Shown here: positions 19,596 to 31,200 of the stretch, piece by piece | Layout of the letters: each line of letters opens with the position of its first letter | Numbering within the stretch: position 1 is the first letter of the stretch | IMG/VR virus record: IMGVR_UViG_3300010389_000064 | Location: 1 to 33,534 of that record | Source: a virus | Length of the DNA: 33,534 nucleotides | Strand: one strand, 5' to 3' | Notes under the pieces: model-generated | Databases searched by the model: none | What the model was told of the DNA's origin: nothing | Seen by the model: only the letters and a program-made list of their open reading frames with translations | Made by a program: the position numbers and the translations under genes

Positions 19596-21056
19596 ATGAA
19601 AAGAATCAACGAAGATCACAAAGAAATCAACAGTGGCAAGAAAAAAGACGATGAAGGTTACATGGCTAGAATCGAGTTAGATTCTATTGAACGGTCAATA
19701 AAAAATTTAAGAAAAGTGATCAAGAAGAGTGATACTCAACTTCCTGCCTGGGTACAATCAAAAATCACTAGAGCAGCAGATTATATTGATTCTGCCACAG
19801 AGTATCTTCAGAGCGATCAAGATTTAGATGAGAATATATCTTATGACATAAATCCACAAAAACACAAAAAAGAAACTAAAAAAAATAAGGCAACTAAGAT
19901 AATAGATCGGCCTGGAACTTATGGTGAAGGTGAGGCAGCGCAAAATGTAACAAAAAAATTAGGTGGAACTGGTGCAATTCGTGTACCAAAATATAAACAT
20001 TTGCCACCATATTATAGAGAGCCACAAAATGAAGAAACCTCACTAGTAGATCAAATCCTATCAGAAATGGGATGTGGCTGCGATAAGAAAAAGAAAAATA
20101 AAAAACTTCAATACGAAGAAAAAGATCCAAAAGGTCCAGTACAACCATATAAAACACCAGAAGAAATTGCAAAGAAGCATGGTGTATCATTGGAGTCAAT
20201 CAAAGCCCAACTAAAAATGGGTATGGAAGTAGAAAAAGAACATACTTCTGATGAGACCGATGCAAGAATTACTGCTCTACAGCACATAGATGAAGTTCCA
20301 AATTATTATACAAAACTCAAAAAAGTAGAATCACAACAAGAAAGTAAAATCGTAAGAGACATGTTTGGTAATGTTTCTTATGAATTTATAGATCTTATTA
20401 GTGCTGATCCCATTATTTCAGAAGGGAAGAAAAAGAAAGCAAAGAAAATGGAAGGTGAAGATCCTTGTTGGAAAGGATACGAAATGGTAGGAACCAAAAA
20501 GAAAAATGGAAAAGAAGTTCCTAACTGCGTTCCAGTTTCTGAAGCCATCATGCCCCAAAAGAACGGACATAATATGTCTGTGACTCTTATGTGGCGAGCG
20601 AAGTATTATAATATTCAAATGTTCTTCCCACAACTAAGAATTCCAAATCGTAGGGAAATTGCAGATGAAGCAAATAAAGTATATCCAGGTTCCAAGGTGA
20701 TTACTTATGCTCCTTGTGCGATACAGAGTAATGTTCCTGTGATTCAAGTTCCCGATAAAAAGTCGAAGAACTATCTTATGAATAATGGGACTATTGGAGA
20801 AGATTGGCAAGCAGTAAATCGTAAAGATAGAACAGATGGCATGAGCCAGAAGGCAGTTGATACTTATCGCAGAGAAAATCCAAGATCAAAACTTAAGACT
20901 GCAGTAACTGAACCAAATCCAACAGGAGAAAGAAAAAATCGCCAAAAAAGTTTTTGCTCTCGATCTGAGGGACAGAAAGATATGCACAATATAGATTGTT
21001 CGTCCACTCCAGATAAGCCAATATGTAAAGCTCGTAGACGCTGGAATTGTCGTTAA
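19596..21056 (+). CDS. Multi-module Lys-rich phage protein between terminase genes
   Basis: This 486-residue protein has no clear enzymatic function. Modules in order: residues 22-75 (MARIELDSIERSIKNLRKVI, LPAWVQSKITRAADYIDSA), a helical segment I recall from cyanophage proteins; 101-145, RPGTYGEGEAAQNV and a KHLPPYYREP motif; 183-245 (YKTPEEIAKKHGVSLESI, EHTSDETDARITALQHIDEVP), which fits DUF5661; about 288-312 (PCWKGYEMVGTKKKNGKEVP); 325-375, a segment with a YPGSKVITYAPC end; 450-486 (KSFCSRSEGQ, CKARRRWNC), which fits DUF6321. Lys-rich linkers (160-180, 275-285) join the modules. It looks like a mosaic of short domains often found separately in marine phage proteins. The start is the first ATG after gp16. 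Its position between terminase subunits suggests a virion or packaging-associated role, but this is not shown. Confidence 0.82.
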   Translation: MKRINEDHKEINSGKKKDDEGYMARIELDSIERSIKNLRKVIKKSDTQLPAWVQSKITRAADYIDSATEYLQSDQDLDENISYDINPQKHKKETKKNKATKIIDRPGTYGEGEAAQNVTKKLGGTGAIRVPKYKHLPPYYREPQNEETSLVDQILSEMGCGCDKKKKNKKLQYEEKDPKGPVQPYKTPEEIAKKHGVSLESIKAQLKMGMEVEKEHTSDETDARITALQHIDEVPNYYTKLKKVESQQESKIVRDMFGNVSYEFIDLISADPIISEGKKKKAKKMEGEDPCWKGYEMVGTKKKNGKEVPNCVPVSEAIMPQKNGHNMSVTLMWRAKYYNIQMFFPQLRIPNRREIADEANKVYPGSKVITYAPCAIQSNVPVIQVPDKKSKNYLMNNGTIGEDWQAVNRKDRTDGMSQKAVDTYRRENPRSKLKTAVTEPNPTGERKNRQKSFCSRSEGQKDMHNIDCSSTPDKPICKARRRWNCR

Positions 21057-21073
21057 ATTAAATTTAAATTATT

Positions 21074-21976
21074 ATGGCCGAAGAACATTATTTGGGCAAT
21101 CCGCTTCTAAAGAAAGCGAATACCCAAATTGAATTTACAGAAGAACAAATTATAGAATTTGCAAAGTGTGCAAATGATCCTGTATACTTTGCAAATAATT
21201 ATATTCAAATCGTTACTCTCGATCATGGTTTACAACCTTTTGAGATGTATCCATTCCAAGAGAGGATGTTGAAATCTTTTCATGAAAATAGATTTAATAT
21301 TTGCAAACTACCGCGACAGTCAGGAAAATCGACAACCGTAGTTTCATATCTACTTCATTATGCTATTTTTAATGATAATGTCAACATTGCAATTCTAGCT
21401 AACAAGGCACAAACAGCACGAGATCTTCTCGGTCGTCTTCAAACTGGATATGAGAACCTACCAAAGTGGTTACAGCAAGGTATTTGCTCATGGAATAAAG
21501 GTTCATTAGAACTAGAGAATGGCTCTAAGATCTTCGCTGCTTCTACATCAGCTTCTTCTGTTCGTGGCAGTACTTATAACATTATTTTCTTGGACGAATT
21601 TGCGTTCGTTCCAAATCAGGTTGCTGATTCATTCTTTAGCTCTGTATATCCTACGATTACTTCTGGTAAGTCTTCAAAGGTGATTGTCGTCTCCACACCA
21701 AAGGGATTAAATCATTTCTATAAATTATGGGATGATGCAAAGAAAGGAAAGAACGAATATGTTCCAATTGAGGTTTTTTGGACTGATGTTCCAGGAAGAG
21801 ACGAAGAATTTAAGAAAACAACCATCGCCAACACAAGCGAAAGTCAATGGAGACAGGAGTTTGAAAGTGTTTTACCTGAAACATTGATAAATATTAGTGT
21901 AGATGGTAGAATGATGGAGACCACAATTGGACAACTGTATAATGACCTATCCGACCAAGGATCAACTAGAGAATGA
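21074..21976 (+). CDS. gp17: Terminase large subunit gp17, N-terminal part fused to split-intein N-fragment
   Basis: Residues 1-264 are the ATPase half of the T4-type packaging motor. The P-loop is RQSGKSTT at 81-88, Walker B is IIFLDE at 170-175, and the STPKG coupling motif is at 207-211. After QWRQEFE the protein leaves the terminase family and enters 36 intein residues (265-300, SVLPETLINISVDGR...) ending at TGA. The rest of gp17 is encoded from 23045, resuming with CEFLGSVDTL exactly where the extein stops here. The product is therefore expected to be trans-spliced to the second part. The first intein residue is Ser (AGT) where related inteins usually have Cys. The start ATG follows the previous gene by 17 bases with no clear ribosome-binding site. 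Confidence 0.93.
   Translation: MAEEHYLGNPLLKKANTQIEFTEEQIIEFAKCANDPVYFANNYIQIVTLDHGLQPFEMYPFQERMLKSFHENRFNICKLPRQSGKSTTVVSYLLHYAIFNDNVNIAILANKAQTARDLLGRLQTGYENLPKWLQQGICSWNKGSLELENGSKIFAASTSASSVRGSTYNIIFLDEFAFVPNQVADSFFSSVYPTITSGKSSKVIVVSTPKGLNHFYKLWDDAKKGKNEYVPIEVFWTDVPGRDEEFKKTTIANTSESQWRQEFESVLPETLINISVDGRMMETTIGQLYNDLSDQGSTRE
21866..21973 (+). other. Split intein N-fragment (36 aa) in gp17
   Basis: The fragment starts at Ser265 of the upstream gp17 part, directly after extein EFE, and runs to the stop codon. It has a block A pattern (S-x-L-P-E-T-L-I-N-I-S-V-D-G). It is very short, since most split inteins have N-fragments of about 100 residues. The shape and insertion point fit the atypical split inteins of phage terminases known as the AceL-TerL type, whose N-fragment is about 25 residues. 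Block B is in the other fragment. Confidence 0.88.
21886..21893 (+). promoter_or_regulatory. Possible late promoter for the homing endonuclease
   Basis: GATAAATA occurs inside the coding sequence of the intein N-fragment, 48 bases upstream of the endonuclease ATG at 21942. It could give the endonuclease its own late transcript. The match is short and the region AT-rich, so chance is a real alternative. Confidence 0.25.
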
Positions 21977-23045
21977 TTATTTTGTGTTAAATATGAGCCA
22001 AGATCAGATAGCACAAAAATATGGGTATAAAACTCGACAAGTTATTGGCAGACTTTTTAAAAAATATGGAATCAAATCAAAATCAAAAAGCGAATTAGCA
22101 ATTGAGCGAGATAAACTCAAAAATCCTATCCCCGAAAAAGAAACTCTAGAAAAATTATACGAAGAAACAAATTCATTGAGTGAAATCGCAAGGATTTTAA
22201 ATGTATCAAGGAAGAAAGTTTCGGATTGGATGTCCCATCATGACATAAAAGTAACATATTTCAAGAATGACATTTGTAATGATGAATTGTTTGAAGAATT
22301 ACATTTCATATCAGTAAAAGAAGCTTCAATTAAATATGGAATATCAACTTACAAAATTAAAGTTCGTGTACCATATGTCCCCAAAGTCAATTATACAAAG
22401 GAAAGAATAAAAGAAATTATTTCCTTATACGATACAAATAATCAAGGTTTTTCCAAAGCAATATCTTTGGAAGATGAAAATGTATACAACACTATTATAA
22501 ATTTGACTAGCAATCACTATCTATATGGGGATAAAATTACAGAAAAAGTTTATAGAATTATTCATGATTTTGAACCTAATGACATTCAAACTTGCAAAAG
22601 TTGTGGAGTGAAAATTAAATTTTACACCATGGAATTGGGATATGGTAATAGTGATTTGCAAATTTGCTCACATTGTGTTGCCAAGCAATCTGCAGTTTCC
22701 AAACCATCGCAAGAGCTATTCTGGAAGATCTACAACAAACTAACTTTAAATGATTGTTATTTTTCTGAATTAAATTATGAAAAAACTGTTGTAGTTACTG
22801 AGAGTGACAAGATTATCTTCAAAGACCATAAGAAATTAAACAAAACAAGATATGTTCTAGATTTTGTCTGTAAAGATAAAGTCATAGAATTTGATGGGAG
22901 ATATTGGCACTCCGATGAAGAAAAAGAAATCGCAAAAGACCTATTTTTGGAGTCTAAGGGATTAAAAATTTTACATGTCACTGATGTTGAGTACAATCAA
23001 GATCCACAAGAAACCTTAAATAAATGCATAAGATTCCTAACATAA
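21942..23045 (+). CDS. Free-standing Vsr-like (EDxHD-type) homing endonuclease
   Basis: This 367-residue protein lies in the break of the split gp17 intein gene. Residues 1-45, 65-103 and 115-142 each look like helix-turn-helix DNA-binding units (SQDQIAQKYGYKTRQVIGR; SLSEIARILNVSRKKVSDW; ISVKEASIKYGISTYKI). A zinc-ribbon-like set follows: CxxC at 218/221 and 242/245. Residues 254-366 resemble a Vsr-like nuclease: SQELFWKIY (E258), YVLDFV (D307), VIEFDGRYWH (E316, D318, H323) and LHVTDVEY (D348). Vsr-like endonucleases between the halves of split-intein genes are the known fractured-gene arrangement from marine metagenomes. It probably cleaves an uninterrupted gp17 allele to spread the insertion. 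The ATG at 21942 is preferred; a TTG at 21927 is in frame. It overlaps the upstream part by 35 bases, and its TAA overlaps the next ATG. Confidence 0.85.
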   Translation: MTYPTKDQLENDYFVLNMSQDQIAQKYGYKTRQVIGRLFKKYGIKSKSKSELAIERDKLKNPIPEKETLEKLYEETNSLSEIARILNVSRKKVSDWMSHHDIKVTYFKNDICNDELFEELHFISVKEASIKYGISTYKIKVRVPYVPKVNYTKERIKEIISLYDTNNQGFSKAISLEDENVYNTIINLTSNHYLYGDKITEKVYRIIHDFEPNDIQTCKSCGVKIKFYTMELGYGNSDLQICSHCVAKQSAVSKPSQELFWKIYNKLTLNDCYFSELNYEKTVVVTESDKIIFKDHKKLNKTRYVLDFVCKDKVIEFDGRYWHSDEEKEIAKDLFLESKGLKILHVTDVEYNQDPQETLNKCIRFLT

Positions 23046-23389
23046 TGAACCTACCAGATACAGTAGTAAAAAATCATAAGAACATAAAAATACTCACACC
23101 AAATGGATATGAATCATTCTTTGGTGTGAATAAGATCAAAAAAGATGCTTATGCACATTTGATTTTTGAGAACGGCAAAGAACTTAAGTGTTCACTGGAT
23201 CATCCATTATCAACAATAGAAGGAATCATAAAAGCAAAAGATCTCGATAAAAATACTGAAATTTTAACAAAGAGCGGAGGCACTTTCTTAAAATCTCGTA
23301 GAGTTATCAAAAAAAATATAGAACTCTTTGATATAGTAAACTCAGGTAAAGATCATCTCTATTATACAAACGATATTGTATCTCATAAC
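23045..23389 (+). other. Split intein C-fragment (115 aa) in gp17
   Basis: The fragment runs from the Met at 23045 to the His-Asn before extein Cys (IVSHN, then CEFLG). Block B is GKELKCSLDHPL, with S-L-D-H in place of the usual T-x-x-H. Block F lies near ELFDIVNSGKDHLYYTN and block G is DIVSHN. The stretch NIKILTPNGYESFFGV resembles my memory of the AceL-TerL C-fragment (NIKILSPNGF). It carries most of the intein fold, so the split lies just after block A. Confidence 0.88.
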
Positions 23390-25318
23390 TGCGAATTTCT
23401 TGGTTCTGTTGATACATTAATTTCTGGTGCAAAACTAGCAACACTAACTCAAGATAGACCAATAAAATCAAATGCTGGTCTTGATATACATGAGGATCCA
23501 ATAGATGATCATCAATATGTAATTACGGTGGATGTTGCTAGAGGAGTGGAAATTGATTATTCTGCTTTTGTTGTTTTTGACATTACTACATTTCCATATA
23601 GAGTGGTAGCAAAATATAGAAATAATGAAATAAAACCAATGATGTTCCCGTACATCATTAAAGATACTGGAAAGGCATACAATAATGCATATTTACTTTG
23701 TGAAGTAAATGATGTTGGTGATCAAGTAGCAGCTGCATTACATTATGATTTAGAATATCCAAATGTTTTAATGTGCTCAATGCGAGGAAGAGCGGGACAA
23801 ATTGTCGGCCAAGGGTTTTCTGGTAAGAAGACTCAAATGGGCGTAAAGATGTCAAAGAATGTCAAAAAAATTGGCTGTATAAACTTAAAAGCAATCATCG
23901 AAGAGGAAAAATTATTACTTAGTGATTATGAAACTATTTCAGAATTAACAACATTTGTTCAGAAGTATAATTCATTTGAAGCCGAAGAAGGTTGTAATGA
24001 TGACCTTGTTATGTGCATTCATAGAGATGCAAAAATAACAACTGAGGATGGAATAAAAACTATAAAATGGATAGTTGACAACAAATATACCGGAAAAGTT
24101 TTATCAGTAGATGAAAATAATAATTTCGTTTGGAGTAGAGTGATCGGACACTCATCAATGCCAAACACAAATAAAAAATGGATTGGAATAAGAGGAAAAT
24201 CAAAGAATACATTAATATGCACAACAGACCATAAGGTTGCATATATTGATGATATATTCAATCCAGAAATAAAATACACCGAAGCAGAAAATATGCTAGG
24301 GAAATATAATGTTATTTTACCTGGCCAGAGATTCCACAAAACGAATCCACTATTCAATAAAGATCAAGTATCAGCTTTAGTTGGAACTCTATTAGGAGAT
24401 TCTTCCATATCAAAGACTGGGAAATTTGTTTGTGCTCATGGGAAAACACAATCAGATTATGCAGAACATAAATGCGAACTCTTTAATTCAAATTTGAGGA
24501 TAAAGAAAAAGAACGAAAAAATCACATATTGGATAGATGGACTCACAAATGAGCATACAAGATTTTTTAGGCAAGAAATGTATCCAAATGGAACTAAAGA
24601 AATAAAAAACATTCTACCGTTTGTTGATGAAATTTCTTTAGCATATTGGTATATGGACGATGGTAGTAGAAGAGGAAATTCTTTAGTTTTATGTACAGAT
24701 AGCTTTACTTATGAAGAACATCAATTGATCGTAGATTATTTTAAAATTAAATTTAACATAAAATCTGAAATTTCAACAATATTTAATGTAAATCCAGTAA
24801 CTAAGAAAAAAACAAAAGCACATAGAATTTACATCAGATCGGAGAATTCCAATCAGTTTTTTGATATTATTTCTCCGTATGTAATTGAATCAATGCGATA
24901 TAAATTGCCGGACAAATACCATGATGTAGAAATAAAAAAATTAAATAATAAATGCCTAGATTTTGGTAGCGAAAAAATAACTAAAATTATGGACAGAAAT
25001 ACAAAAGGTTTCGAGAGTAGGTTATATGATATAACTGTAGAAAATACCCATAATTTTATTGCCAATGGTATGGTAGTTCACAATTGTTTAGTCATTTTCG
25101 CCTGGCTCATTGTTCAAGATTACTTCAAGGAAATGACGGACAATGATGTTCGCAAAAGACTTTATGAAGAACAACAAAATCAACTAGAGCAAGACATGTC
25201 TCCGTTTGGATTTATCATTGATGGTAGAGAAGATAATAATTTTGTAGATTCCGATGGAACTCGTTGGTTTACTGATGAGTATGGCGATATGTCATATATG
25301 TGGGAATATAATTTCTAA
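23045..25318 (+). CDS. gp17: Terminase large subunit gp17, C-terminal part with split-intein C-fragment and a second intein
   Basis: The ATG overlaps the endonuclease stop (TAATG), which suggests translational coupling; an upstream in-frame ATG at 23024 is less likely. Residues 1-115 are the intein C-fragment. Residue 116 starts the C-extein (CEFLGSVDTL). The RNase H-like nuclease that cuts packaged DNA follows, with catalytic acids at D163 (ITVDVARG), E220 (LLCEVNDVG) and the Asp pair D319/D320 of NDDLVM, matching T4 D401, E458 and D542. Residues 324-680 are a second intein, inserted between NDDLVM and CLVIFAWL. Residues 681-757 are the C-terminal tail. Removing both inteins and joining to the N-part gives 264 + 208 + 77 = 549 residues, a normal size for marine T4-like gp17. 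Confidence 0.93.
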   Translation: MNLPDTVVKNHKNIKILTPNGYESFFGVNKIKKDAYAHLIFENGKELKCSLDHPLSTIEGIIKAKDLDKNTEILTKSGGTFLKSRRVIKKNIELFDIVNSGKDHLYYTNDIVSHNCEFLGSVDTLISGAKLATLTQDRPIKSNAGLDIHEDPIDDHQYVITVDVARGVEIDYSAFVVFDITTFPYRVVAKYRNNEIKPMMFPYIIKDTGKAYNNAYLLCEVNDVGDQVAAALHYDLEYPNVLMCSMRGRAGQIVGQGFSGKKTQMGVKMSKNVKKIGCINLKAIIEEEKLLLSDYETISELTTFVQKYNSFEAEEGCNDDLVMCIHRDAKITTEDGIKTIKWIVDNKYTGKVLSVDENNNFVWSRVIGHSSMPNTNKKWIGIRGKSKNTLICTTDHKVAYIDDIFNPEIKYTEAENMLGKYNVILPGQRFHKTNPLFNKDQVSALVGTLLGDSSISKTGKFVCAHGKTQSDYAEHKCELFNSNLRIKKKNEKITYWIDGLTNEHTRFFRQEMYPNGTKEIKNILPFVDEISLAYWYMDDGSRRGNSLVLCTDSFTYEEHQLIVDYFKIKFNIKSEISTIFNVNPVTKKKTKAHRIYIRSENSNQFFDIISPYVIESMRYKLPDKYHDVEIKKLNNKCLDFGSEKITKIMDRNTKGFESRLYDITVENTHNFIANGMVVHNCLVIFAWLIVQDYFKEMTDNDVRKRLYEEQQNQLEQDMSPFGFIIDGREDNNFVDSDGTRWFTDEYGDMSYMWEYNF
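24014..25084 (+). other. Contiguous LAGLIDADG intein (357 aa) in gp17 nuclease domain
   Basis: The intein starts with Cys (CIHRDAKITTEDG, block A) and ends with VVHN before extein Cys. Block B has T70-T-D-H73 and block F is RLYDITVENTHNFIANG. The endonuclease part has two LAGLIDADG motifs at intein residues 121-130 (LVGTLLGDSS) and 209-217 (LAYWYMDDG), with Asp at 129 and at 215/216. The LAYWYMDDG form is typical of the LAGLIDADG family also found in group I introns. All splicing and nuclease residues I can check are present, so it looks active. Confidence 0.92.
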
Positions 25319-25340
25319 AAATTCACTAAAATACTGTTTT

Positions 25341-25349
25341 TCATAAATA
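25341..25349 (+). promoter_or_regulatory. Candidate T4-type late promoter before gp18
   Basis: TCATAAATA contains the full ATAAATA core, 37 bases upstream of the gp18 ATG in the 68-base gap after gp17. GGGAG at 25376-25380 is a plausible ribosome-binding site. This is one of the longest gaps in the window, and it precedes the highly expressed tail sheath gene. Confidence 0.55.
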
Positions 25350-25386
25350 TTTTTTAGAGAAATAGAGTATTTTTAGGGAGAAAAAC

Positions 25387-27579
25387 ATGGCGACTCCTCA
25401 ATTGTCTCCAGGCATTCTTGTCAGAGAGGTTGATTTAACTGTAGGAAGAGCTGATAATGTTATTGATAACATTGGAGCTATTGCAGGACCTTTTGCAATT
25501 GGCCCTGTAGAAGAACCGATTGACATCACAACAGAGCAAGAATTAATCAACACTTTCGGTAAGCCTTTATCAACTGATGCTCAGTATGAGTATTGGATGA
25601 GTGCATCATCATATCTATCTTATGGTGGTATTCTTAAGGTTGTTCGTGTAGATGATGACAACCTTAAAAATGCAAGAGTTGGTTATAATACTACAGCAAC
25701 TGTAGATATCAAAAACTTTGATGTTTATAACAATCAAGAAACTGGATCTTATCACTTTTCTGCAAAGACTCCCGGTACTTGGGCAAATGGTCTTAAGGTT
25801 TGTGTAATTGATGATAAGGCAGATCAGATTATTGGAATTAATACCACTGATCCTGGAGTAGCAGGTGCACAAATTGGCTATGGTGTTACTGTTTCACTAT
25901 CTGGAGTTGCTTTTGCTGGTGTTGGCACTACATCAGAATTCAGTGGATATTTAAAGGGTATTATTACTGGTGTAACTACTAATACCACTGGAAATTCAAC
26001 TTTTGATGTTAAGATTGTATCTAGAGTAACTTCTGCAGGAGTAGAAACTGAAATAGATTACGCACAAGGTTCCGAACTCACTGCAATCTCAGCTGGTGCC
26101 AATTTAACTTTCATCAATAATTCTGGCACTTCAACCGGAACCGGATCATACACTGCTCTTACTGTACAAGACTGGTATGATCAACAAACTCTTGGCTTAA
26201 CCAATTCTACTCTATTCTGGAGATCTATTGCGCCAAAACCAGTCACAAATCAATATGCGGCAACTAGAAACTCTAAAAATGATGCATTGAACATTGTAGT
26301 TATTGATGACACTGGTTCACTCACTGGAGTACAAGGAAATATTCTCGAAAAGCATGTTTCTGTCTCCAAAGCAACCGATTCTGTATCTGGTGTAAATTCA
26401 CCACAAAAAACTTGGTACAGAAACTATCTTGCCAATTTCTCCAATTATGTCTATTCTGGAACAAATTACTACACATCAACTGATGTTCTAAATGGCATCA
26501 CTCCGGTTGCAACTGGTTTCAGTACTTATTCTGGTGTTCCTTCAGCATCATTCACTCCATTGAGTGTTGCCAGTGGTGGTTGGAATCAAGAGGCGCAAGG
26601 AACTTTATTTAATGCAATCGGTAATGTAACCTTTGAACTTGCTGCTGGTGCAGATTATGCTGGAAATGGCGCAAAGGCTACTCTTGGTGCACTTAACACT
26701 GCATATGATCTATTTGCAAATGAAGACGAGATCGAGGTTGATTATCTAATTTGTGGCCCTGGGCTAGAAACAAAAGAAGATTCTCAAGCAAAAGCAAATA
26801 AACTTATCTCAATTGCAGAAAACAGAAAAGACTGCGTTGCAGTCATTTCTCCAGATAGAGCATCTGTAGTTAATGTGACGAATACAACTACTCAAACAAA
26901 TAATGTAGTTGACTTCTTCTCACCACTATCATCTTCTTCATATGCAGTCTTTGATAGTGGTTATAAGTACACTTATGATCGCTTCAATAATCTATTCCGT
27001 TATATTCCATGTAATGCCGATGTTGCTGGTCTGATGGCTAGAACTAATGTGACTGCATATCCGTGGTTCTCTCCTGCAGGGCAGCAGAGAGGTGTTCTGA
27101 ATAATGCAATTAAACTTGCATATAATCCAAATAAATCCCAAAGAGATCTTCTTTATAAAGCAAGAGTCAACTCCATCATTAATCAGCCTGGAACTGGAAT
27201 TCTACTCTTTGGCGATAAGACTGCATTATCTTATGCATCAGCATTTGATCGAATAAATGTTCGTAGACTGTTCCTTACCGTTGAGCAGGCTCTTCGCAGA
27301 TCTGCAGAAGCTCAACTCTTCGAACTCAACAATCAAACTACGAGAGCAAACTTTGTAAATATTGTTGAACCATATCTAAGAGATGTTCAGGCAAAGAATG
27401 GTGTTTATGATTTCTTAGTTGTTTGTGATAGCACCAACAATACTCCTGATGTAATTGATAATAATGAATTCAGGGCTGATATTTTCCTGAAGCCAACTAG
27501 ATCCATCAACTATATTACATTGACCTTCGTTGCTACAAGAACTGGTATTTCCTTCGAGGAAGTAGCAGGTAGAGTTTGA
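25387..27579 (+). CDS. gp18: Tail sheath protein gp18
   Basis: This 730-residue protein is recognised as the T4 gp18 tail sheath, the contractile outer tube of the tail. The N-terminus (PQLSPGILVREVDLTVGRAD, AIAGPFAIGPVEEP) and the C-terminal region (YLRDVQAKNGVYDFLVVCD, FLKPTRSINYITLTFVATR) are characteristic. It is somewhat longer than T4 gp18 (659), with a Gly/Thr/Ser-rich insertion at about residues 155-245. The RIPGTG-like site reads INQPGTGILLFGDKT, followed by NVRRLFLTVEQALRR, which fits the conserved C-terminal sheath core. The start has GGGAG six bases upstream. It is followed by the tail tube gene as in T4. Confidence 0.96.
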   Translation: MATPQLSPGILVREVDLTVGRADNVIDNIGAIAGPFAIGPVEEPIDITTEQELINTFGKPLSTDAQYEYWMSASSYLSYGGILKVVRVDDDNLKNARVGYNTTATVDIKNFDVYNNQETGSYHFSAKTPGTWANGLKVCVIDDKADQIIGINTTDPGVAGAQIGYGVTVSLSGVAFAGVGTTSEFSGYLKGIITGVTTNTTGNSTFDVKIVSRVTSAGVETEIDYAQGSELTAISAGANLTFINNSGTSTGTGSYTALTVQDWYDQQTLGLTNSTLFWRSIAPKPVTNQYAATRNSKNDALNIVVIDDTGSLTGVQGNILEKHVSVSKATDSVSGVNSPQKTWYRNYLANFSNYVYSGTNYYTSTDVLNGITPVATGFSTYSGVPSASFTPLSVASGGWNQEAQGTLFNAIGNVTFELAAGADYAGNGAKATLGALNTAYDLFANEDEIEVDYLICGPGLETKEDSQAKANKLISIAENRKDCVAVISPDRASVVNVTNTTTQTNNVVDFFSPLSSSSYAVFDSGYKYTYDRFNNLFRYIPCNADVAGLMARTNVTAYPWFSPAGQQRGVLNNAIKLAYNPNKSQRDLLYKARVNSIINQPGTGILLFGDKTALSYASAFDRINVRRLFLTVEQALRRSAEAQLFELNNQTTRANFVNIVEPYLRDVQAKNGVYDFLVVCDSTNNTPDVIDNNEFRADIFLKPTRSINYITLTFVATRTGISFEEVAGRV

Positions 27580-28293: not shown

Positions 28294-31200
28294 ATGGCAA
28301 GACTATTTGGTTTTTCGATTGAAGATTCAAATAAAAAGTCACCATCAGTATTATCCCCCATTCCTCAAAATAACGAGGATGGGGTTGATCATTATCTGAC
28401 GAGTGGTTTTTTTGGATCTTATGTTGATATTGAAGGTGTTTACAGAACTGAGTTTGATTTAATCAAGCGTTATAGAGAGATGGCACTACATCCAGAAGTA
28501 GATAGTGCCATCGAAGATATTGTTAATGAGGCTATCGTATCGGATACAAATGATTCACCAGTTCAAATTGAATTATCCAATTTAAATGCCAGTGATGGAC
28601 TCAAGAAAAAAATTAGAGAAGAATTTAAGTATATTCTAGAACTATTAGATTTTGACAAAAAAGCACACGAAATTTATCGAAATTGGTATATTGATGGGCG
28701 ACTTTACTATCATAAAGTCATTGATCTTAAAAATCCACACCTAGGAATTCAAGAACTACGATATATCGACTCGATGAAGATGCGATATGTCCGCCAAGAA
28801 AAGAAAGTTAAAAAAGATAATAATGCACCAAGATCTACCAATGGTCTTATTGGTGATCAAAATCCAATGAACTTTAAGTTTCCAGAGATTGAGGAATACT
28901 TCATTTATGATCCAAAGAGTTCTTATCCTGTTGGTGGTGGCATTGCCAATATGGGTACTGCATCACCAGATAGAGGAGTAAAGATTGCAAAGGATGCGAT
29001 TACTTATTGTACTTCTGGTCTTGTAGATCGAAACAAAGGAACTACTTTATCTTATTTGAATAAGGCTATTAAGGCATTAAATCAGTTGAGAATGATTGAG
29101 GATTCATTGGTTATCTATCGTTTGTGTTTGATTGGCGATTCACGAGTCAAGACAGACAATGGATACTCATACATCAAAGATATCAATGTTGGTGATGTTG
29201 TATATGCTTATGACAACAGAGTTGATGCTCTGGTCAAAACTCCAGTCACCAATAAGTGGCTAACTGGAACTAAAAAAACTTATACCGTAAAATCAAAGCA
29301 TCATAGCATCACAGGAACAGATACTCACCCTGTTCTTGTTTATGATTCCAATACAAAAGAAGTTAAGTATGTACCCATCAAGGATCTGATTCCTAAAGTA
29401 CATTCACTGACTTATATCAAACCAGAATCTACGAATGATATTGTATTGTTCAATGATGTCAGAGAGAAAGCATACTCAATTGTTGATACTCAATTCTGGC
29501 CAACATTTAAACTAGAAGGAAAAGAAAAGTTCATTGAAACTTTATCAGAAAAAACTGGAGTAAAAGCAACCAGAATCAGAAACTTCCTTTATGGATCGCA
29601 ACACCTAGAAGAATCAAGTCTAATTAAGCTCAAAGAAGAGTTTAATGAATTGAATAATATTGAGTATAATGAAAAATATGAAGGATTCTGTAATAATGAG
29701 CTTAATCTCCCAGAGTTCGTAACTCCTGAGTTTGCTCGTCTATTTGGATTCTTGCTTGGCGATGGATCGGTAAGCAAATACAGAGTTGTTTTTGCTGAAG
29801 GAGAAGACGAAGAACAAAATCTATATTATGCAAATCTTATGAAAACTTTCTTCGGAAATTGTACAAGATACGATTCAAAGAATAGAAAATATACAAACTA
29901 CACAACAAGCAATACTCTCGCTGCAGAACTACTAATTTCTCTTGGCTACATTCCAGGAGCAAAAAATAAGAGAATTCCAAGTTGGGTATTTAATGCATCT
30001 GATGAAATTAAGAGGCAACTTGTTCTTGGTCTATTGGATGCTGATGGTCATTATCGTGATCTTGTGAATGGATTCTCATGTGAAATCTCATTGTGCAATA
30101 AGCAACTCATTGAAGATATCAAGGAACTTTGGACTTCTATTGGTTTATGTTCTGGTCAGATCCGCCATAGAATAAGAGAAGAAAAACTGAGAATTGTTGG
30201 TGAGGAAAAAGAACCTCGACTAATGCCAAGATCAGAATCTTATGAACTATATCTAAGCGAATATGAACTTCCGAAGTTTGAGAAAATTATGTCTATTGAG
30301 TATCATTCCGAGGAAGAAGTTTATGATATAGAAGTTGAACACGAAAAACATAATTTCGTGGCTAACGGCATCGTGGTACACAACTCAAGAGCACCTGAGC
30401 GTAGAATCTTCTACATTGATGTTGGCAATCTACCAAAAGTAAAGGCAGAACAATATCTTCGTGATGTTATGATGCGGTATCGCAATAAACTTGTATATGA
30501 TGCCTGTTTAGCAATGGATACTAAAGTTCCATTATTGGATGGTAGAACTCTTACTCTTACTGAAATTACAGAAGAATTCAACAAAGGAGAAAGACTTTGG
30601 ACTTATTCCTGCGATCCAAATACTGGAAAATTTGAGCCAGGTATTATTAGTTGGGCAGGTGTAACTAGAAGAAACGAAAAAGTAGTACGAATAACACTTG
30701 ATAATAATGAAACAATAACATGTACATTAGATCATAAGTTTCCAGTTTGGGACAAAGGAAAAGTAGAAGCCAAAGATTTACAAATTGGTGATTCCATGAT
30801 TCCTTTCTACTCAAAGAAAGAAAATGATTACACACAAATATTTGAAAATGAATCTGGCCAATGGAAATTTGTTCATGAGTTAATTTCTGAGTGGAAAGAT
30901 CAAAATCATATTCTCAATGAATATAATGACAAAGAAAATGATAAAGTTGTGCATCATGTAGATTGTAATGTTTGCAATAACACACCAGAAAATCTAATGA
31001 GGTGTGATGTAGCTGATATTCAAGAATATTCAACTAAAGATTTAGTATCTTATAAAAATCATAAGATTAAAAACATTGAATTTCTAGATGAAACTATGGA
31101 TGTAGGAACTCTCACGATTGATAAAGAGGAGCTATATCATGATCATCATACCTTTGCATTAAGTGCTGGAGTTTATACCTGTAACTCAACTGGGGAAATT

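What the first reader, a model, noticed from the sequence alone, without database searches (positions are those of the whole stretch)
21074..25318. Terminase large subunit gene fractured by an atypical split intein with a homing endonuclease gene in the break
Seen: the ATPase half of gp17 ends at EFE, is followed by 36 intein residues and a stop; an unrelated nuclease gene follows; then a 115-residue fragment with blocks B, F and G ends in SHN directly before CEFLGSVDTL, where gp17 resumes. Nothing of gp17 is missing or repeated across the junction. Known: fractured genes with split inteins and free-standing Vsr-like endonucleases were described from marine metagenomes, and AceL-TerL is an atypical split intein of a terminase from a lake metagenome. 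Inference: this is another natural member in a near-complete late-gene context, with the split just after block A. The very short N-fragment and unusual first residue make it worth characterising.
Basis: partly seen in the sequence, partly recalled or inferred. Interest (0 to 1): 0.92.

Follow-up and report, generated by a model that had tools for sequence, protein, structure and literature searches.

The report
Split-intein terminase with mobile endonuclease gene
A virus of the cyanophage type carries its DNA-packaging motor gene in two pieces that are almost certainly stitched back together at the protein level by a split intein of an already known type (GOS-TerL/AceL-TerL), and relatives from other samples show how the nuclease gene sitting in the break spreads, moves with only one half of the intein, and is lost.

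Summary
TerL (gp17) stops after ...RQEFE plus a 36-residue N-intein with Ser1. A Vsr/EDxHD-like endonuclease gene follows, overlapping both neighbours, then a 115-residue C-intein ends in SHN before CEFLG. Relatives with an uninterrupted gene (L005, 99.6% identical) prove an exact insertion. The C-intein's nearest solved relative, by sequence and predicted fold, is the engineered consensus of AceL-TerL and GOS-TerL (6DSL_B). Ser1/Cys+1 with 36/115 residues matches the characterised GOS-TerL (Ser1/Cys+1, 37/115). So this is a new member of a known kind; the 'unusual first residue' is typical of a 13-member clade. My survey adds: about 80 relatives at this TerL site. Ser1 alleles carry Vsr-like nucleases or none; Cys1 alleles mostly GIY-YIG. 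Two contiguous mini-inteins sit at the same site. Endonuclease scars in L003 and L102 show repeated loss with the intein kept. A near-identical tract (21713-23146; 0.8% against 11.5% divergence outside) shared with L002 marks a recent exchange of upstream flank, N-intein and nuclease, largely without the C-intein. Splicing and homing are inferred, not shown.

The parts
21074..21865 (+). TerL (gp17) N-extein, ATPase domain, 264 aa, ends ...WRQEFE
   Evidence: Pfam Terminase_6N E=1.1e-23; PHROG terminase large subunit; contiguous with C1 in L005 and others
21866..21976 (+). N-intein (IntN), 36 aa, Ser1, block A SVLPETLINI, then stop
   Evidence: aligned with IntN of relatives at the same site
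21942..23045 (+). Free-standing homing endonuclease gene (367 aa from ATG): HTH repeats, Cys-rich zinc-ribbon-like part, C-terminal Vsr/DUF559-type nuclease domain; overlaps IntN by 35 nt and IntC by TAATG
   Evidence: DUF559 2.4e-7, MTES_1575 REase 1.2e-5, HTH families; HEN family alignment A3; weak profile match to 3R3P (mobile intron protein, I-Bth0305I) E=0.055; ORF edges
23045..23389 (+). C-intein (IntC), 115 aa, block B S-x-x-H (SLDH), block F Asp, penultimate His, terminal Asn
   Evidence: CatC 6DSL_B phmmer 2.4e-20; AF2 pLDDT 92 and Foldseek top hit 6DSL_B E=4.5e-9 TM 0.82; invariant residues
23390..24013 (+). TerL C-extein part 1 (starts at Cys+1, CEFLGSVDTL), 208 aa
   Evidence: Pfam Terminase_6C 1e-11
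24014..25084 (+). Second, contiguous intein of TerL, 357 aa, LAGLIDADG endonuclease, DDLVM|C...VVHN|C
   Evidence: Pfam LAGLIDADG_2 7.6e-31 and Intein_splicing 2.2e-19; empty in L002, L003, L005; homologue at the same site in L035
25085..25318 (+). TerL C-extein part 2, 77 aa and stop
21713..23146 (+). Near-identical exchange tract shared with L002 (12 differences in 1434 nt against 173 in 1506 outside); within it 0 differences in the last 153 nt of N-extein and in IntN
   Evidence: log-likelihood gain 84 against at most 10 in 30 shuffles

Best explanation
The locus is a fractured TerL gene of a T4-like (cyanophage-type) virus. Two precursor proteins are made, TerL-ATPase + 36-aa IntN and 115-aa IntC + TerL-nuclease. 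They associate, fold into one Hint domain and trans-splice by the class 1 pathway with Ser1, the block-B Ser/His pair, the terminal His-Asn and Cys+1. A contiguous LAGLIDADG intein in the second half is removed by cis-splicing, giving an uninterrupted 549-residue terminase. The gene in the break encodes a Vsr/EDxHD-like homing endonuclease that would cut intein-less TerL alleles at the EFE/CEF codons during co-infection, so that repair copies the element. The sequence shows exact insertion, intact catalytic residues, purifying selection on IntC, empty and occupied alleles, HEN decay with intein retention, and an exchange tract covering flank + IntN + HEN. Splicing, cleavage and homing themselves are inferred. 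It is a GOS-TerL-type intein.
For: Exact empty sites. Same arrangement in L002, and in L003 with a decayed HEN. CatC match 2.4e-20 and fold match TM 0.82. Ser/His of block B, D, H, N and Cys+1 conserved. IntC dN/dS 0.05-0.07 against L002 and L003. Ser1 clade support 100/99 with residue 1 left out. Joined IntN+IntC aligns end to end with contiguous mini-inteins L154/L159 at the same site, score 153 against shuffle maximum 28. Exchange tract. No Rfam intron in 20500-26000.
Against: No experiment or peptide evidence. The 36-aa IntN alone has no PDB match, is not distinguishable from shuffled letters when aligned alone to the cis intein (12 against a shuffle maximum of 27), and rests on position, block A and relatives. 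Pfam's intein model matches the joined intein only weakly (E=0.0055, below cut-off). The Vsr assignment rests on DUF559 and a weak 3R3P match. Both sequences compared in the tract analysis are metagenome contigs.
Confidence: 0.93

Rival explanations
1. The two TerL halves are not spliced; they work as two separate non-covalent subunits (as in the two-piece ribonucleotide reductase reported for a phage), with relic intein ends.
For: A nuclease insertion that leaves a working two-piece protein is known for a ribonucleotide reductase (Friedrich 2007, cited in PMC10448857). The split lies after the ATPase domain.
Against: IntC is under purifying selection (dN/dS 0.05-0.07) and keeps its catalytic residues over 37 aligned relatives; relic ends would decay. 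L003 and L102 lost the HEN but kept the intein.
Confidence: 0.04
2. Assembly artefact: the split and the HEN come from chimeric joining of reads.
For: Window and L002 are metagenome contigs; the near-identical tract could in principle be shared by misassembly.
Against: The same order occurs in L002 and L003 with 87-89% identical flanks, in dozens of further loci, and in cultured phages with a split at this TerL site (Vibrio VP-1, K469). The tract is 99.2% identical, not 100%.
Confidence: 0.02
3. Nucleic-acid-level element (group I/II intron or frameshift/bypass) carrying the HEN, joined at RNA level.
For: HENs commonly ride on introns in phage genes.
Against: No Rfam hit at E<=1 in 20500-26000. 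Flanking coding sequence is intein at both ends. HEN-less alleles are just two overlapping or adjacent ORFs (L103, L105, L111, L181).
Confidence: 0.01

Closest known systems
GOS-TerL split intein (Bachmann & Mootz 2015, as reviewed in PMC11766414)
   Same: Host gene TerL, atypical split after block A, Ser1/Cys+1, IntN 37 / IntC 115 against 36 / 115 here
AceL-TerL and the engineered consensus Cat (PDB 6DSL)
   Same: CatC is the top sequence and fold match; atypical split of a TerL intein
   Different: Cys1/Cys+1, 25/104 (AceL) and 30/104 (Cat); the window falls in a separate Ser1 clade; Cys1 relatives at this site mostly carry GIY-YIG nucleases
Fractured genes with split inteins and free-standing Vsr-like endonucleases (Dassa et al. 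2009; paper not held, known by citation and from memory)
   Same: Two precursor ORFs with split intein ends and an independent HEN gene between
   Different: From my own knowledge the classic cases (gp41, NrdJ, IMPDH) split at the usual endonuclease position; here the split is right after block A
AceL NrdHF (PMC7891396)
   Same: Phage gene fractured by a split intein with a HEN gene between
   Different: Class 3, 98/48 split, GIY-YIG nuclease, other host gene
I-Bth0305I (EDxHD family, PMC3943268)
   Same: Phage HEN of elongated multi-domain build with a Vsr-like catalytic domain
   Different: Intron-borne; only a weak profile match (E=0.055)

Membership tests
GOS/AceL-type atypically split TerL intein | Inserted in TerL at the EFE|CEF position | tested here: met
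   Exact empty site; that AceL/GOS use this same position is from my own knowledge
GOS/AceL-type atypically split TerL intein | Split just after block A: IntN about 25-37 aa, IntC about 104-115 aa | tested here: met
   36/115; literature values
GOS/AceL-type atypically split TerL intein | Sequence and fold relationship to the consensus Cat intein | tested here: met
   6DSL_B E=2.4e-20, TM 0.82
GOS-TerL subtype | Ser1 / Cys+1 nucleophiles | tested here: met
   SVLPETL... and HN|CEFLG
Class 1 split intein | Block B Thr/Ser-x-x-His, block F Asp, block G His-Asn, Cys/Ser/Thr+1 | tested here: met
   S-L-D-H, invariant D96, H114, N115, Cys+1
Class 1 split intein | Trans-splicing activity | not testable with these tools
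   needs co-expression
Class 1 split intein | IntN and IntC form one Hint fold | tested here: inconclusive
   IntC alone models as the C part of a Hint fold; joined chain could not be submitted; joined sequence aligns end to end with cis mini-inteins L154/L159, whose own model was poor (pLDDT 63)
Fractured gene with free-standing HEN | Independent HEN ORF between two split-intein ORFs | tested here: met
   ORFs 21074-21976, 21942-23045, 23045-25318
Vsr/EDxHD homing endonuclease family | Vsr-like catalytic domain plus DNA-binding modules | tested here: inconclusive
   DUF559 above cut-off and HTH modules; conserved DF..K.IEFDG.YWH; 3R3P only E=0.055
Vsr/EDxHD homing endonuclease family | Cuts the intein-less allele | not testable with these tools
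   no assay

The most novel reading that the evidence does not exclude
IntN and the endonuclease gene form one mobile cassette that homing exchanges between alleles already carrying IntC, so that new N-fragments are repeatedly paired with a resident C-fragment; the dispensable tail of GOS-type IntN would be a relic of overlap with the nuclease start. Evidence not excluding it: the tract shared with L002 covers flank + IntN + HEN and fades inside IntC; L003 has 95% IntC but 46% IntN identity to L002.
Probability: 0.4. Interest if true: 0.6.

Novelty: new member of a known kind. Interest (0 to 1): 0.42.

Why it matters
Short-N split inteins are protein-labelling tools, and few natural ones have been characterised. 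The survey adds dozens of candidate pairs, a Ser1/Cys+1 clade, two contiguous relatives at the same site, and a series from empty site through HEN-bearing and HEN-scarred to HEN-free split intein. That makes the origin and homing cycle of split inteins testable in one gene.

Tried and rejected
Rfam search for introns: nothing. PDB search with IntN alone: nothing. AF2 of the contiguous relative L154 from two sequences: pLDDT 63, its fold search is meaningless and was not used. The papers of Dassa 2009 and Bachmann & Mootz 2015 are not held, so GOS-TerL identity could not be checked. A claim that Ser1 arose twice was dropped: one Ser1 clade is not rejected (AU p=0.475). The link Ser1 = Vsr-like and Cys1 = GIY-YIG rests on few independent clades (exception L086) and is reported as an observation only.

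Full report
OBSERVATION. ORF 21074-21976 encodes 264 residues of TerL (Terminase_6N, E=1.1e-23) ending WRQEFE, then 36 residues SVLPETLINISVDGRMMETTIGQLYNDLSDQGSTRE and a stop. A nuclease gene runs from ATG 21942 to 23045, overlapping the N-intein by 35 nt and the next gene by TAATG. From ATG 23045 a 115-residue C-intein ends in SHN at 23389, directly before CEFLGSVDTL. In L005, 99.6% identical in the N half, and in more than 60 further loci the two extein parts are contiguous with no residue lost or gained.

A SECOND INTEIN. The downstream ORF is not just IntC + TerL. It holds a contiguous 357-residue LAGLIDADG intein at DDLVM|C...HN|CLVIF (24014-25084; LAGLIDADG_2 7.6e-31, Intein_splicing 2.2e-19), absent from L002, L003 and L005 and present at the same site in L035. 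The 549-residue product requires both to be removed.

WHAT THE SPLIT INTEIN IS. The best PDB sequence match of the joined intein is CatC, the C part of the consensus of AceL-TerL and GOS-TerL (6DSL_B, E=2.4e-20). A model of the window's IntC with 36 relatives has pLDDT 92, and its first Foldseek match is again 6DSL_B (E=4.5e-9, TM 0.82), followed by gp41-1 and other inteins including VidaL. Catalytic residues are in place: Ser1, block B S-L-D-H, Asp, His-Asn, Cys+1. According to the review PMC11766414, GOS-TerL is a natural atypical split intein of 37/115 residues with Ser1/Cys+1, whose IntN can be trimmed to 27 residues. The window allele is 36/115 with Ser1/Cys+1. It is therefore a new member of that type. 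The original GOS-TerL and fractured-gene papers are not held, so sequence identity with GOS-TerL was not tested.

SURVEY. A profile of the C-inteins found 79 viral and 3 genome-contig loci. IntN fragments of about 24-46 residues followed by a stop are the rule (longer in a few, e.g. 56 in L162), with Cys1 or Ser1. A tree of joined inteins, built without residue 1, places the window in a clade of 13 Ser1 alleles (support 100/99), with L140 and L182 as further Ser1 alleles; one Ser1 clade is not rejected (p=0.475). Ser1 alleles carry Vsr/DUF559-like nucleases (window, L002, L108-110, L140, L182) or none; Cys1 alleles mostly carry GIY-YIG-type ones (most were assigned by similarity within alignment A2, not each by Pfam). 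L086 is a Cys1 allele whose Vsr-like nuclease is in frame with IntC without a stop. In Vibrio phages VP-1 and K469 a GIY-YIG-like nuclease is fused in frame to IntN (read from the sequence). L154 and L159 have contiguous mini-inteins of 134 and 132 residues at the same site; the joined window intein aligns to them end to end (score 153 against a shuffle maximum of 28).

MOBILITY AND LOSS. Against L002 the window differs by 12.7% in 21074-21712, by 0 of 153 nt in the last part of the N-extein, 0 of 108 in IntN, 0.8% in the HEN, 4.3% in 23043-23300, 14.6% in the rest of IntC and 11.4% in the C-extein. The best single segment is 21713-23146 (log-likelihood gain 84 against at most 10 in 30 codon shuffles). 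I read this as a recent conversion that moved flank, IntN and HEN onto a genome that already had IntC. Consistently, L003 has 95% IntC identity to L002 but only 46% IntN identity, closer to L104 (57%). HEN scars remain in L003 (its start, and 12 of the last 13 residues) and in L102 (37 residues at 59%, 5e-13, and the last 18 at 61%), with weaker traces in L103 and L104. L105, L111 and L181 have no HEN at all. The intein is kept after HEN loss, and IntC is under purifying selection (dN/dS 0.05-0.07), as expected if splicing is needed to make TerL. The last 10-11 residues of IntN overlap the HEN start in another frame. I infer that the trimmable tail of GOS-TerL is a relic of such an overlap.

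MECHANISM. Shown: exact insertion, conserved active residues, fold of IntC, selection, empty and occupied alleles, exchange tract. Inferred: association and class 1 trans-splicing to TerL, cis-splicing of the second intein, cutting of empty alleles by the HEN and homing by repair in co-infected cells.

CONTEXT. TerL is 74-76% identical to Synechococcus T4-like phages and a joined portal extein stretch 95% to Prochlorococcus phage P-TIM68. Portal gp20 contains two further contiguous inteins (29125-30384 with LAGLIDADG; 30505-31185 with an HNH-like part), and its exteins are contiguous in other phages. The window thus has four inteins in the two genes of the packaging motor.

VERDICT. Real, well supported and correctly interpreted, but a member of a characterised kind. 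The fresh content is the population evidence for exchange of the IntN+HEN unit and for serial HEN loss.

Noticed in passing
window 29125-30384 and 30505-31185: Portal gene gp20 carries two contiguous inteins (420 and 227 aa); the second has an HNH-like part and ends ...VYTCN|STGEI, with penultimate Cys instead of His. Four inteins in two packaging-motor genes.
   Followed up: partly
L003:2161-3477: L003 TerL has a further contiguous 439-aa intein at VVS|C...GHQ|TPKG, ending in Gln rather than Asn.
   Followed up: no
L089-L093, L096: Split inteins with Vsr-like endonuclease genes at another TerL site, inside the Walker A motif (GK|C...HN|TT); Vibrio phage VP-1 has a contiguous mini-intein there.
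   Followed up: partly
L100 (Campylobacter phage Los1), L101 (phage phiS): TerL fractured at Walker B (DE|C...HN|CAF). In Los1 the C-half follows the neck gene and no N-half is adjacent; in phiS a nuclease-like stretch is fused to IntN. Annotated only as terminase or packaging protein.
   Followed up: no
L086:3428-4666: Vsr-like endonuclease in frame with IntC without a stop: a one-ORF HEN-IntC-TerL arrangement.
   Followed up: partly
L181, L182: Ser1 TerL split inteins in contigs binned into a Chloroherpeton MAG and a Bacteroidetes MAG, presumably phage contigs.
   Followed up: no
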